A stretch of 64,000 nucleotides of DNA from Apostichopus japonicus (lineage: Eukaryota > Echinodermata > Holothuroidea > Aspidochirotida > Stichopodidae), in assembly GCF_037975245.1 (NCBI RefSeq), contig NC_092565.1, positions 10,343,499-10,407,498 of the forward strand, given 5' to 3'. The position numbers and the translations under genes were made by a program. The notes beneath the pieces were generated by a model, which was not told where the DNA came from, did no database searches, and saw nothing but the letters and a program-made list of their open reading frames with translations. Positions 12,007 to 58,740 of the stretch are shown piece by piece (within the stretch, counting starts at the first letter, position 1; the number at the start of each line of letters is the position of its first letter).

Positions 12007-13151
12007 TTTTACAAATTATCTGCATGAAAGATCCCGAGCCGAAAATGTACTTTTCTGGAATTATTTTGAAAATACATGTCATCACGTATGTAGACAATTA
12101 TGGTCATTAAATAGGCAAAAATATAATATTAAACTTCAATTGTGAGATTGTTTTATAATGGTGTGTGTGATTAAGTATGTGCTATTACGGATTATGAATA
12201 GCCGTTGTATAAATTTAGACCTTTTCTTCCCATTAGCATTAATCTGGGTCCATACCATGCATTTATAAGGAAACATAAGTAAAGGAATTATAAGTAAAGC
12301 AAGCTAGTCTGTGTCACCAACTTGACCCTTCATTATTGCCAACTCGAACTGAGTGATCCCAACAGGCTATATGATTGATGGTCACCCACTAAACGCCTAC
12401 ACAAAACCAAGGAGTTGTTATAACGACTCCCTGCACAAACAAATGGTGGCGTACATCGTTATTGTGTAGATTCATATCCATGGTAACGTCGTGATCTGAT
12501 TTAAATGTTACCGCACTTTCAGAGCGTATAGTCAGACCAGGGAGTTGTTCCATAACAACTCCCAGCATCTCTCAGCCCAAGTAAACCTGATCTGATATCA
12601 AATAGCTGTCGCACGCAGGTTACGACCTTCGCCTTTAAGGTCGATGCGAGTCATTGCCAGTGACTACGATTCATGATTCATGACTCCGATTGGCTTAGAC
12701 CTACTGTCGTGTGACTCGTATCTAACTCACTATTGGAGGAAAGACTTGGGGTGACTTCAGTGTGACTTTTGAAAGTTCTCCGAAAAACTCACGTCATATA
12801 TGTCACATTACAACACTGTTGCGACATTAATGGATTGCCATGAATGGGACAAAGTCATCTTATTTTGTCAAATTAATTATATGCAATTAAATTACTTTCC
12901 GAAAACAAGTTTTCTTTAAGACTTCCAACCTTAATCCTATAGTTCCAGCCCTTACAACAAGACTAGGCGATACATCTCTATGTACTATATAAATTACCAG
13001 CTCCACATGCGGCCTGTGTTTTTATTTACTATAGTTTACTCGTACTTTTATATGGATTCTGATATTAATAAAATGCCCACAAAATCTGTAGCCTGATATC
13101 ACTAGTACTCCAGTCTTCTGTGTAAACTTAAAATGATACTTTTTAAGAAAA
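12007..13151. other. Non-coding DNA with two palindromes
   Basis: No gene. GGAGTTGTTATAACGACTCC at 12411-12430 and a near-identical palindrome at 12541-12562 share their arms (GGAGTTGTT / AACAACTCC) with a third at 61959-61977. They may be ends of a foldback element or short regulatory palindromes. I cannot tell which. Confidence 0.5.
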
Positions 13152-13331
13152 GTCACCCAGGAAAGATCCTGGGCGCAAAAACCAAACTACCGAACGACTG
13201 ATCCGCGAGTCAACCCCAGTCCCCTTGCATCGAGACTGTGACTGTGTGATCATCGTCGGGTGTGCATCACCATTCCCCTCGAAAGGGTACAGATACTTCA
13301 CATGATCTTAGCCAAAAGGCCGAGAAGCGAT
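13152..13331 (-). ncRNA. U2-like spliceosomal snRNA or U2-headed SINE
   Basis: Read on the minus strand from 13331, the sequence opens with ATCGCTTCTCGGCCTTTTGG followed by CTAAGATCA and AAGTATCTGT. That is the 5' stem-loop I and branch-point region of U2 snRNA. The length (about 180 nt) is close to the usual 188. Differences matter: the GUAGUA that pairs with intron branch points reads GAAGUA, and after AGTATCTGT the normal U2 continuation is replaced by CCCTTTCGAGGG (a UUCG hairpin) and unfamiliar sequence. A possible Sm site, GGTTTTTG, precedes a perfect terminal hairpin, CCCAGGA-TCTT-TCCTGGG. CTTTTCTTAAAAAGTA follows and resembles an snRNA 3' box. It could be a divergent U2-type snRNA, a chimeric pseudogene, or a SINE with a U2 head. 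U2 ancestry of the 5' end is sure; function is not. Confidence 0.7.
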
Positions 13332-14334
13332 CTGTAAAACTAAAATGTTCTCCCTCCTTTCAACACTAGCCAAGGAAGCTCACTACTCTATGCACATGTA
13401 AGCCTAAAACTTGAGATTGTTTACAATGTAGCTGTCGTAAGTTTGCTTCCCAGCTCGGGTACGCTTCAATAATCCCTTAGTTCTACTTCACTTTGTTTAA
13501 TCTGTGACGTCACAAAAAAGTCTACCTTTGAGTTCACACTGCTATGGTCTTCAATTATAAACCAATCTTTCAATAGTGGATACTGTACACCCGTGACGTA
13601 TATATACGGCGTATACAATACTGTAGCCGGGTTTCAACTATCAAATAGTGGTGATCATATTTCATATCTCTACGTTGGTAATCTCATGCAACCTCTATAT
13701 GATGAAGGCTTCATATACCAGCATATTATTGTTAAGTTTTATTGCGGAATCGATCTTCTTTAGGGACACATAATGGATCGATTTTGAAAACGGTCTATGG
13801 GACTTGAAGAACGTACGTGTATACTCGTGTGTGTGTGTGTTTGTACTGAAGCAGTCTTGGTTTATATTGTTCCACCAAAAGATATCAAATACGTGGCGAA
13901 TTATTATACTTGAATCGGTGGATGGTTCATCGGCTATAAGAAAGATGCTACATACCGATCTAAACTGATATACTATGCCTGAGAATCATGGAAGGAATTA
14001 TTATTCTCTACAGACAATGACAAGGTAAGTTTACTAGCGGTTGGTGCATGTGTATCGAGAAGAGTCCCACTGACCTCAAAGCCCGCATAACACAGATATG
14101 GCCTACCGTATGTGGAGGCCCGAAAGGCGCGATTGTCGGATAGTGGCCCTAGCTATATTGTTGACGAAAAACAATTTAGTTACAATTTTCAAAAATTTCC
14201 AAAAGATCAAGATGCAGGTAGGCCTATACTTTATTAGTCATAAAGCTAACGCCATGTTGTCTATACTTCAACTGCATATAGGCAATCAAGTTCCAAATGG
14301 ATGATTAGTTCCTTAAAGAGTGTTTCTTATTATA
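13332..14334. other. Non-coding DNA upstream of the snRNA-like gene
   Basis: The first 100 bp would hold the promoter of the minus-strand snRNA-like unit. I see no unambiguous proximal sequence element or TATA box. The remainder has a short GT run near 13829 and no gene. Confidence 0.4.
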
Positions 14335-18922: not shown

Positions 18923-18958
18923 GCTTTTTTTTTTGTATCAAGACACCACACATCCGCA

Positions 18959-21088
18959 ATGCCTTCTTTCTTTTGGCGTTTGTTTTTGGTAGTTTGTTTC
19001 TCCTTCTCGGCGGCTAGAGTCTTTCTAGTCATCTTCTATATGCGTGAAGAATGGCCAGCCGAGATCCCATACAACTCAAGACATAGCTACGGAAGGCAGC
19101 GGCGTATTCTAATGGAAGATTTTAATGCAGATTCCATCTTTCATCCAAGTTTCGATAAACTGAAGCCACACGAGGAGGATCCGTCTGATACGCAAGACAA
19201 TTTTAAGAACTTAAGTCGAGAAGAAATACGTCTAATGCAAAAATCTCCAGATCAATTACAAAAAGTTGCTGTGGTTTGGGACGAGAACAACCACGTTCGA
19301 AACGAAGAGTCAGCGAATAGTGGGGTGAAAGCGGTCGATAGGAAATCTCTCTTCCAAAAAACGAGAACTGCAGAATTTCCGATCAATCCACCTAATGTGT
19401 GCGATGAAGAGATTTTGTTGTTAATATTAGTCCATTCCTTACCAAGAAACCATGCCCAACGGGATGCGGCTCGAGGTGCCTACGGGAAAAACTTGACTCA
19501 AATTTTAGATCGTAATGTAAAGGTGGTCTTCTTTTGCCCGGGTACTTCTCCATCAAAAGTTGTGAATGATCAAATTTATACGGAAAGTTTGCGATACAAT
19601 GATTTGGTTCATTCTAAAATTGCTGATTCTATGCAAACATTTCGGCCATCGTCGAAGACAATGCTTTCTGAGTTCAATTGGGTGAAAACATATTGTTCAT
19701 CCGCTAAATTCATCTTATTTGCAAATGATGAACAATTTATAAACTTGGAAGGTATAGTTGCCCGCATGAAACGTCAAGAAAATAAGGATCTAAGCAACTT
19801 TTATCTAGGTCGGGTCAAAAAGGGTGCCAAGCCAAATCGACTAAGGAACGAATGGGATTTCGTACCGGAGTCGGCTTTCCCGGGAGAAGTTTATCCGAAT
19901 TACTGTATCGCTGGTGCAGGGATGATCCTATCCAGTGCTTTCATCCAATCTGTTTACGACCCAGCTGTGTCTTTCATATCGGAGGTTAAAGCATTTCCAA
20001 TAAGTGACGTTATGTTGGGTATAGTAGCTAGTAGGTTGAAAAAGGCACCGATGTACAACGATGAATTCCGTAAAATTGGCGGAGAAGCAGTGTACTGCGA
20101 TTTGAAAGAGACGCTCGTCCTCGGAGATTTCAACAAACCCAATCTTTTACTTGGTGCTTGGGCTAATTTTACCATTCACAAACAAAGTCATTGTCCAAAC
20201 CCTGTCCCTAACGCAACAGAGATTGAAGAGTGGACCGAAGGTGTGGACCACAAATCGTTCCTCAGTGAAGTCCTTTACCTCCATCACAGTCCAGAGGAAA
20301 TTTGTCTGGATGACGAGGGGACCAATAAGGTGTTCCTCTTGGCTCTAGTCAGCACCCATCCGGACCACTTTGAACTCAGGGATGCCATTCGAGAGACGTG
20401 GGCGGAGCCAAGTTATCAAAACAAATTTAAGGTCAAAACGTTATTTGTTATGGCCAGGCCAAGGAAAGACTCGCCTGAAAAACAAGAAAGGATCAGGAAA
20501 GAGTTTGAGGAGCATAATGATTTAGTTCAAGGAGATTTTTTAGAATCTTTTCATAATTTAACTCTTAAAGTAATATTAGGTTTGAAATGGTCCAGTATGT
20601 ACTGCCCAGGAGCGTCTTTCATTTACAAAGGGGACGATGACATGTTAGTCAATTTTGAAGGAATAGTTCGATACGTGAAAGGCCTGGAAGAAAGTCAGGC
20701 GAAAGAACTTTTCTTAGGTCATCTTATGACCTCGAGTCCAGCTATAAGGACGCCCTCAAAGTATCAAACAAAACGAGGACAGTATCCCTTTAAGTATTTC
20801 TTGCCGTATTTTTCTGGTGGAGGTTATATCATGGCACAGCAAGCGGTCAGGAAAATGTATCAGAAAGCTTTAACAACTAAATTTATTCCAATCGATGACG
20901 CTTTCGCGGGAATTTTGGCTTTTCGTTCTAATATTCGTTTAAAGCATTCGGGTGGTTTTATAACGACAGGGTTTAGGAAAGATCACTGTAGATTAAAGTC
21001 AGCTTTCAATTTACATGGTTTTAAGAAGACGGAAGTTATGACAAGTACATGGAAGGAATTTCAACATGTAAACGAAACCTGCGCGTAA
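18959..21088 (+). CDS. Tandem-domain beta-1,3-galactosyltransferase-like protein (GT31)
   Basis: A 709-residue type II membrane protein, uninterrupted in one exon. Residues 5-27 form a signal anchor, followed by a stem rich in charged residues to about 148. Two GT31 (Galactosyl_T) domains follow. Domain 1 (about 150-370) keeps the fold but has NDEQ at 256-259 where DxD should be, and IAGAG at 317-321 replaces SGGG. Domain 2 (about 457-670) has RDAIRETW (474-481), KGDDD (557-561), FSGGG (618-622) and IDDAFAG (645-651), all expected of an active Mn2+-dependent, UDP-sugar-using enzyme. N-glycosylation sequons lie at 178, 403, 418, 533 and 705. It would act in the Golgi on glycoprotein or glycolipid acceptors; donor and acceptor are unknown. 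An in-frame TAG at 18920 and no intervening ATG fix the start. Usual family members have one domain and 300-420 residues. Confidence 0.93.
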   Translation: MPSFFWRLFLVVCFSFSAARVFLVIFYMREEWPAEIPYNSRHSYGRQRRILMEDFNADSIFHPSFDKLKPHEEDPSDTQDNFKNLSREEIRLMQKSPDQLQKVAVVWDENNHVRNEESANSGVKAVDRKSLFQKTRTAEFPINPPNVCDEEILLLILVHSLPRNHAQRDAARGAYGKNLTQILDRNVKVVFFCPGTSPSKVVNDQIYTESLRYNDLVHSKIADSMQTFRPSSKTMLSEFNWVKTYCSSAKFILFANDEQFINLEGIVARMKRQENKDLSNFYLGRVKKGAKPNRLRNEWDFVPESAFPGEVYPNYCIAGAGMILSSAFIQSVYDPAVSFISEVKAFPISDVMLGIVASRLKKAPMYNDEFRKIGGEAVYCDLKETLVLGDFNKPNLLLGAWANFTIHKQSHCPNPVPNATEIEEWTEGVDHKSFLSEVLYLHHSPEEICLDDEGTNKVFLLALVSTHPDHFELRDAIRETWAEPSYQNKFKVKTLFVMARPRKDSPEKQERIRKEFEEHNDLVQGDFLESFHNLTLKVILGLKWSSMYCPGASFIYKGDDDMLVNFEGIVRYVKGLEESQAKELFLGHLMTSSPAIRTPSKYQTKRGQYPFKYFLPYFSGGGYIMAQQAVRKMYQKALTTKFIPIDDAFAGILAFRSNIRLKHSGGFITTGFRKDHCRLKSAFNLHGFKKTEVMTSTWKEFQHVNETCA

Positions 21089-58140: not shown

Positions 58141-58740
58141 CTAAAGTCGCTGTAAGTCATTTAGACCCCAGATCCTTTTTTTAAACTCTGAGCCGTTTTT
58201 GTTAACAAGGGCGATGATTTTCCCATCGTGTGACCAAGCTGATTTTACCATGGGACAGTTTTTTGTGGCCTTTAGGAGATCTTGGTTAGGCTTCGTAAGG
58301 TCTTCCCTGATGACGATTTTGGTTCCTTTTAGTTTTCTTCGGTTTTTTATAAGTCGATCTCTTTCCTCGTAGTTAGAGAACTTGACTAAGATGGCTCTCG
58401 GTTTATTGGCTTCTTTCTGTCCTACTCGGTGCGATCTGTCAATATCTTTTTGGCTTAGTGTGTAGCCAAAATACTTCGATGCAATTTCACTGATAATAGT
58501 GCTTGTGTTTTCATTCGGCCTGTCTTCAATGCCAAAGACACGTAGACAGTTTCTGCGAGAGTACTGCTCTAACTCATTTATCTCCTTTAGCGAGCGATCA
58601 CATTTTTCTTCGAGCATCCTGATTTTGTTTGTAATTTCCTGCACATCTTTCGACGATTTTTCCATGGTTACCTCTATGTCGTGAAGTTTGCATGAGTTTC
58701 GAGTCGTTCAAGTAGTTCGTCCATTTTTTAGCACAAACCC
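58141..58740 (-). pseudogene. Non-LTR retrotransposon ORF1 remnant, frameshifted
   Basis: Read from 58724, an ATG frame opens with MDELLERLETHAN and shifts by one base near 58685. It then continues as a 174-residue frame from 58665 to the stop at 58141. The latter has an N-terminal coiled coil (about 5-38), then EQYSRRNCLRVFGI, the start of the RRM-like domain of LINE ORF1 nucleic-acid-binding proteins, then SHRVG and PRAILVKFSNYEERD. No ORF2 (endonuclease/reverse transcriptase) follows, so the copy is dead and incomplete. Confidence 0.82.

What the first reader, a model, noticed from the sequence alone, without database searches (positions are those of the whole stretch)
13152..13331. Chimeric U2-headed small RNA with its own Sm-like site and terminal hairpin
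The first 43 nt are U2 (stem-loop I and branch-point region), but the GUAGUA recognition element reads GAAGUA and the remaining 137 nt do not resemble U2. That 3' part ends as a spliceosomal RNA should: GGTTTTTG, a perfect 7-bp hairpin, and a 3'-box-like CTTTTCTTAAAAAGTA. U2 identity and the hairpins are read directly. That it is a lineage-specific variant snRNA with altered branch-point preference, or a new SINE family with a U2 head (as in the crocodilian SINEU type), is inference.
Basis: partly seen in the sequence, partly recalled or inferred. Interest (0 to 1): 0.75.

Follow-up and report, generated by a model that had tools for sequence, protein, structure and literature searches.

The report
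U2-headed SINE, also in U2 genes
The odd small-RNA-like sequence is one copy of a short mobile element whose front end is a piece of the splicing RNA U2; close relatives of it sit inside U2 gene repeats next to intact U2 promoters, which suggests that it spreads by borrowing that promoter.

Summary
The sequence is real, but lies on the minus strand (13331 to 13137) and is longer than stated. It is one copy of a 195-base SINE with a U2 snRNA head, not a variant snRNA gene. The genome search gave 43 matches at 40 places, this one included; only 40 of 2870 candidates were scored, so copy number is unknown. Target duplications exceed the 99% null in 25 of 36 copies tested, this one included. Consensus nt 1-45 equal this species' U2. 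GAAGTA is a minority variant (2 of 40). The surprise lies elsewhere: a 180-kb U2 array holds seven SINE tails, each followed by U2 from nt 35, where most of the ~5-kb Keno-like LINE inserts there also end. Five SINE-bearing units keep 298-300 of 300 promoter bases; none of 40 dispersed copies shows that promoter. Best reading: array copies are transcribed from the U2 promoter as U2-body chimeras that re-insert in U2 genes as sources, or elsewhere as promoterless copies. Unproven: transcription, and the partner LINE (no array LINE shares the SINE tail).

The parts
13137..13331 (-). Whole SINE copy (94% identical to the 195-base family consensus)
   Evidence: blastn against the 40-copy consensus; genome copies
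13287..13331 (-). Head, equivalent to U2 snRNA nt 1-45; differs from this species' U2 at nt 34 and nt 44 (both T to A)
   Evidence: RF00004; U2 genes of the same genome; alignment
13176..13286 (-). Body; no Rfam family found in it; begins with a CCC/GGG hairpin whose loop varies between lineages
   Evidence: Rfam; alignment
13154..13175 (-). 3' hairpin, conserved in the family; proposed reverse-transcriptase recognition element (inference)
   Evidence: columns of the 40-copy alignment
13137..13153 (-). 3' end ACTTTTCTTAAAAAGTA; the last GTA is either the element's own end or copied from U2 nt 36-38 (not decided)
   Evidence: 29 of 36 copies have GTA after the A-run; array copies read AAAAAGTATCTG
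13332..13347 (-). Target duplication, 5' side: CATTTTAGTTTTACAG
   Evidence: p=0.002 against mismatched flanks
13118..13135 (-). Target duplication, 3' side: CATTTTAAGTTTACACAG (imperfect)

Best explanation
The window holds a dispersed copy, probably inert, of a SINE made of U2 snRNA nt 1-45, a body of about 110 nt without an Rfam relative, and a 3' hairpin with an A-rich tail. SHOWN: the family is dispersed with target duplications; the head of its consensus equals this species' U2; no good Pol III B box was found; seven further copies lie inside units of the tandem U2 array, each followed by U2 from nt 35; most LINE inserts there end at the same place; five units in which a SINE begins the insert keep an intact U2 promoter. 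INFERRED: array copies are transcribed from the U2 promoter as U2(1-45)-body-tail-U2 RNA. A LINE reverse transcriptase recognises the tail and copies the RNA by target-primed reverse transcription. If the target is another U2 gene, the U2 part of the cDNA pairs with U2 upstream of the cut and gives a seamless new source copy. If the target lies elsewhere, a U2-headed copy without a promoter is left, as in this window.
For: Dispersed family: 43 matches at 40 places. TSDs: 25 of 36 tested copies above the 99% null, this copy p=0.002. Head equal to U2 in the C16 and C15 genes, with T at nt 30 in both. U2 array: 83 U2 5' ends, 55 exact intact, 1 near intact, 27 interrupted or other. In the 27 interrupted units whose two ends were paired, U2 resumes at nt 35 (20 units) or nt 38 (7 units, one LINE group). 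Seven exact SINE tails, all followed by U2 from nt 35. Promoter identity 300, 300, 300, 299 and 298 of 300 in the five SINE-bearing units examined; in 40 upstream flanks of dispersed copies only three matches of 14-29 nt at E 0.03. 5' joins in the array, counted from nt 35: 19 nt for two truncated copies, 11 nt ending at U2 nt 45 for three body-complete copies, nt 45 being where the head of the dispersed copies also ends. Stacked insertions at the regenerated site. No B box with one mismatch or fewer, while 536 of 1000 shuffles have one; TTTTT before the 3' end.
Against: No LINE insert in the array shares the SINE tail or body, so the partner is unidentified. The array copies are not the parents of the sampled subfamily: body-complete ones are 94-95% identical to the consensus, with loops CCTTAGGG, CCCTCGGG or CCCTAGGG against CCTTTCGAGGGG. 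Of seven array copies, one truncated copy shows no measurable duplication and one complete copy only 8 nt because of a base change. Variants seen in fewer than 3 copies are about as frequent per site in head (20 in 41) as in body (71 in 135); variants in 4 or more copies are 0 and 6, too few to decide. The end GTA does not tell direction. No transcription data. The sample of 40 is biased to close full-length copies. Only the C16 array was read through, and a tandem array may be misassembled.
Confidence: 0.7

Rival explanations
1. Ordinary SINEU family: the U2 head was joined once by template switching, dispersed copies are transcribed by read-through or an unrecognised promoter, and the copies in the U2 array are side insertions by the Keno-like LINEs.
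For: More dispersed places (40) than array copies (7) were seen. The array copies are not parents of the sampled subfamily. Template jumps onto small RNAs, including U12 snRNA, are reported for R2 (abstract and passages of PMC3414825).
Against: All seven array copies sit at one site, and five units that begin with a SINE have the U2 promoter, while 40 of 40 dispersed flanks show no such promoter. The head of the dispersed copies ends where the 11-nt duplication of array copies ends. No B box with one mismatch or fewer.
Confidence: 0.2
2. Retrocopies of U2 genes that happen to carry an insertion: no SINE life cycle, only repeated passive copying of chimeric U2 transcripts.
For: Dispersed copies have the 5' structure expected of retrocopies of such a transcript.
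Against: The body itself moves: the array holds three different truncation points and complete copies with three loop variants. The consensus of 40 dispersed copies ends at the SINE tail, not at the U2 3' end.
Confidence: 0.06
3. A lineage-specific variant U2 snRNA gene with altered branch-point preference.
For: U2 head, hairpins and a 3'-box-like end are present.
Against: Dispersed repeat with TSDs. GAAGTA in only 2 of 40 copies. No U2 promoter found. Only U2 nt 1-45 present. 55 exact intact U2 genes in the array.
Confidence: 0.02

Closest known systems
SINEU (snRNA-headed SINEs; Kojima 2015, GBE evv100, not held)
   Same: Short dispersed retroposon with a U1- or U2-derived head. Seen in other papers: SINEU derives from U1 and U2 snRNAs (PMC8143547 passage) and snRNA-derived SINEs are reported from crocodilians (PMC8010984 passage).
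   Different: Body and tail could not be compared, since the 2015 paper and Repbase are not held. Here copies also sit inside U2 genes at a LINE target site; I saw no report of that in the listings, a library of open-licence papers only.
R2 SIDEs and R2/R1 hybrid SIDEs of Drosophila (PMC3414825, abstract and passages seen)
   Same: Non-autonomous elements in a tandem RNA gene array that rely on co-transcription with the host gene and on LINE machinery.
   Different: SIDEs are internally deleted LINEs with a ribozyme that frees them from the co-transcript. This body has no similarity to the 22 LINE inserts of the array, and its dispersed copies keep the host-gene head.
Keno and Utopia, U2-targeting LINEs (PMC4640811: passages and sections 6 and 8 seen)
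   Same: Target in the same stretch of U2. The paper gives nt 39 for U2 resumption in Phytophthora and says that Utopia 3' flanks equal Keno's. Here alignment resumes at nt 35 or 38, which allows a cut at nt 39 if the elements' own ends are AGTA or A. One ORF2 tested has the APE-type endonuclease that the paper gives for Keno.
   Different: They are autonomous LINEs. The tails seen in the array do not match the SINE tail.
U2 spliceosomal RNA (RF00004)
   Same: Nt 1-45.
   Different: The other U2 domains are absent; no U2 promoter was found at the window copy.

Membership tests
SINEU | 5' head derived from U1 or U2 snRNA | tested here: met
   RF00004 hit; consensus nt 1-45 equal to the genome's own U2
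SINEU | Short dispersed multi-copy element with target duplications | tested here: met
   43 matches at 40 places; 25 of 36 tested copies above the 99% null
SINEU | Tail shared with a partner LINE | tested here: inconclusive
   No match in 22 LINE inserts of the U2 array; the genome-wide tail searches did not complete
SINEU | Sequence relation to crocodilian SINEU bodies | not testable with these tools
   The 2015 paper is not held; no Repbase on hand
Pol III SINE (tRNA, 5S, 7SL) | Internal A and B boxes | tested here: not met
   A-box match with one mismatch, no B box with one or fewer; T runs at 15, 150 and 180
SIDE | Internal deletion derivative of a LINE | tested here: inconclusive
   Against the 22 LINE inserts of the array only matches of 15 nt or less, E 1.8 or worse; other LINEs of the genome were not tested
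SIDE | Co-transcription with the host RNA gene | not testable with these tools
   Promoter intact in five array units; no RNA data
U2 snRNA gene | Full set of U2 domains | tested here: not met
   Only the 5' part aligns
U2 snRNA gene | snRNA promoter | tested here: not met
   Window copy is among 40 flanks without similarity beyond 14-29 nt to the array and C15 promoters
Keno (array LINEs) | Insertion in U2 at the Keno/Utopia site | tested here: inconclusive
   U2 resumes by alignment at nt 35 (15 of 22 LINE inserts) or nt 38 (7 of 22); compatible with nt 39, not proven
Keno (array LINEs) | APE-type endonuclease | tested here: met
   Exo_endo_phos and RVT_1 in the one ORF2 tested; its nearest solved protein is L1 ORF2p, E 9e-75, R2 at 9e-14
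Keno (array LINEs) | Tx1-clade phylogeny | not tested
   No reference Tx1 sequences on hand

The most novel reading that the evidence does not exclude
A SINE with a two-phase life cycle and no promoter of its own: copies that land in the U2 array become transcribed sources under the U2 promoter and take U2 nt 1-45 as head, while copies that land elsewhere are dead on arrival. The head would be taken anew from the host gene in each cycle, which would explain how snRNA-headed SINEs exist without a Pol III promoter.
Probability: 0.52. Interest if true: 0.75.

Novelty: new variant of a known kind. Interest (0 to 1): 0.6.

Why it matters
SINEs normally carry a Pol III promoter inside them. snRNA heads are odd because U2 is transcribed by Pol II from an external promoter that retrocopies lose (established knowledge). 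Copies of this SINE in U2 units with intact promoters give a concrete, testable answer to how such elements are expressed. They also link three things known apart: snRNA-headed SINEs, U2-specific LINEs, and parasites co-transcribed with RNA gene arrays. About a third of the U2 5' ends in this array (27 of 83) are interrupted or otherwise not intact, so the cost to the host is also of interest.

Tried and rejected
Variant snRNA gene: rejected (copies, TSDs, GAAGTA in 2 of 40). Internal Pol III promoter: no B box with one mismatch or fewer. Tail donated by one of the array LINEs: no match. U2 promoter upstream of dispersed copies: none in 40 flanks. One search was a first attempt with a wrong lookup; its promoter identities of 86-87/300 and its C15 promoters are void and were redone. 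Reset of the head: direction as expected, too few sites. Target-site table typed by hand: discarded and replaced by a computed one. The first TSD test had a null inflated by adjacent copies (3 of 40 above its 99% point); it was repeated with shorter flanks and without four copies (L018, L022, L025, L029) that have another copy beside them. Five secondary or partial matches of 45 were dropped before the 40-copy consensus. Kojima 2015 could not be read (one search fetched a wrong paper through a misremembered DOI). The organism was not identified. The folding z-scores (-2.1 for the window copy; -4.3 for the consensus) show a stable fold but do not tell a SINE from a functional RNA.

Not reached: genome-wide copy number, partner LINE, and loop variants of dispersed subfamilies, because the genome search answered only.

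Full report
What was checked. The sequence at 13152-13331 does contain a U2 head, but on the minus strand. Rfam U2 matches 13331-13255 at 46.1 bits, just over its gathering score of 46. The alignment shows that only about the first 43 nt match and that most of the rest of the model is deleted. The hairpin, the GGTTTTTG and the A-rich end are present as described.

It is a repeat. A search of the whole genome (671.6 Mb, 35 contigs, unnamed) with the 180 bases gave 43 matches at 40 places, the window copy included; three matches are second pieces beside another copy. Only 40 of 2870 first-look candidates were scored, so this is a lower bound and a sample biased to close, full-length copies. The places lie on 16 contigs. 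Aligning 40 copies gives a 195-base consensus that begins with the U2 5' end and ends CTTTTTCTTAAAAAGTA. The window copy is 94% identical to it over 13331-13137. The base that makes GAAGTA is T in 37 of 40 copies, A in 2 (the window copy and L020) and C in 1, so it says nothing about branch-point choice in the family.

It has target duplications. I compared the 5' and 3' flanks of each copy, with mismatched pairs of flanks as null. 25 of 36 copies exceed the 99% point; the window copy has p=0.002, with CATTTTAGTTTTACAG against CATTTTAAGTTTACACAG. Four of the 40 copies were left out because another copy lies next to them. The duplications of those 25 are 8-23 nt long. In structure it is therefore a SINE: short, without coding capacity, dispersed and flanked by duplications.

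The head is this species' own U2. The U2 genes were found with RF00004: 46 scored matches, 42 in a tandem array on contig C16 with mostly 645-base spacing and 4 on C15. Their first 45 nt, read in the loci fetched, equal the SINE consensus, including a T at nt 30.

The key observation. I fetched 180 kb of the C16 array. Counted by an exact 14-base start, there are 83 U2 5' ends: 55 exact intact genes, 1 near intact and 27 interrupted or otherwise different. By alignment there are 28 partial 5' ends, one of which has its other end outside the stretch. In the 27 paired units U2 resumes at nt 35 (20 units) or nt 38 (7 units). In 22 of these the insert holds LINE sequence: five groups of 7, 7, 4, 3 and 1 inserts, mostly about 5 kb, with two shorter fragments and one composite of 7.9 kb. 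One ORF2 tested has an APE-type endonuclease and a reverse transcriptase and is nearest to L1 ORF2p among solved structures. Endonuclease type and U2 target fit Keno as described in PMC4640811 (passages). The Tx1 clade was not tested, and the other LINE groups were not scanned.

The other inserts are this SINE. Seven exact SINE tails lie in the array, in six units, all followed by U2 from nt 35. Five of these units begin with the SINE (5' ends at 31132509, 31133952, 31134735, 31059492 and 31021932). Their promoters match the consensus of intact units at 300, 300, 300, 299 and 298 of 300 bases. In one of them two SINE copies are stacked, the second in the regenerated target. In the sixth unit a truncated SINE follows LINE sequence, again at the regenerated target. 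Counted from nt 35, two truncated copies have duplications of 19 nt (to U2 nt 53) and three body-complete copies 11 nt (to U2 nt 45, where the head of the dispersed copies also ends). A fourth complete copy has 8 nt because of a base change, and the third truncated copy shows none. The cut may lie up to four bases further on, at nt 39, the position given for Utopia in Phytophthora, if AGTA is the elements' own end; all these lengths then shrink by four.

Why this suggests a mechanism. No U2 promoter was found upstream of dispersed copies: in 40 flanks there are only three matches of 14-29 nt at E 0.03. The consensus has an A-box-like stretch but no B box at one mismatch or fewer, and T runs, the last just before the 3' end, that would be expected to stop Pol III (the effect on Pol III is general knowledge). 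Copies inside U2 units do have a promoter in place, and a transcript from it would start where dispersed copies start. The joins at nt 45 are what one expects if the cDNA carries a U2 head that pairs with the target; that step is inference. The GTA after the A-run (29 of 36 copies; the duplication begins after at least one of those bases in 20 of 25) shows that the element supplies these bases. It does not show whether they were copied from U2 or are its own.

What speaks against it. No array LINE has the SINE tail, so the LINE that copies this SINE is unknown. Body-complete array copies are 94-95% identical to the dispersed consensus and carry shorter loops (CCTTAGGG, CCCTCGGG, CCCTAGGG) than the sampled copies (CCTTTCGAGGGG), so they are relatives and not parents of the window's subfamily. 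One copy on C15 that appears dispersed has another short loop. Head and body carry similar densities of rare variants, and the absence of subfamily variants in the head (0 against 6) is too little data. Transcription was not observed.

Compared with what is known. SINEs with U1 or U2 heads are known as SINEU (Kojima 2015). That paper is not held; I saw it only cited or summarised in passages of PMC8143547, PMC8010984, PMC7245038, PMC5753468 and PMC4640811. PMC5753468 says, citing it, that sequence-specific Tx1 LINEs occur in crocodilians. My further recollection that crocodilian SINEU gained heads repeatedly and depend on a Tx1 LINE comes from no call, and that paper may already discuss how the heads are acquired. 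Elements that live inside a tandem RNA gene and depend on its transcription are known as R2 SIDEs (PMC3414825, abstract and passages); they keep a ribozyme and derive from LINEs. The present element resembles a SINEU in make-up and a SIDE in where its probable sources live. The listings of my paper searches showed no report of a SINE inserted in U2 genes, but the library holds open-licence papers only.

Verdict. The finding is a real U2-headed SINE copy, not a new snRNA. On its own it looks like a new member of SINEU. With the U2 array it becomes a new variant: a SINE whose probable source copies sit in the very genes that give it its head and promoter.

Noticed in passing
L061-L078 (G000:C16:30995001-31175000): The U2 array carries five groups of LINE inserts (7, 7, 4, 3, 1); in at least 12 of 22 inserts both long frames of their group are open from stop to stop.
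   Followed up: partly
L054 (same gene also in L053) and L055: Three of 55 exact U2 genes have a foreign upstream region (70, 91 and 91 of 300 bases like the others). In two of them a poly-A stretch lies upstream of about -13, possibly a retro-insertion in the promoter.
   Followed up: no
L049, L050, L051 (contig C15): U2 genes outside the array whose promoters show no blastn similarity to the array promoter; a SINE copy with its own loop variant lies about 1.4 kb from one of them.
   Followed up: partly
L018, L022, L025, L029: SINE copies next to a second copy. In L029 the second shares only the last 55 nt of the consensus and has a different upstream part, a possible lead to the partner LINE or a sister SINE.
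   Followed up: partly
window 18923-21088, +: A 721-aa open frame that looks like a tandem beta-1,3-galactosyltransferase-type protein, by eye and from recall; no search made.
   Followed up: no
window 58141-58707, -: A 188-aa open frame that resembles a LINE ORF1 coiled-coil protein, by eye and from recall; no search made.
   Followed up: no
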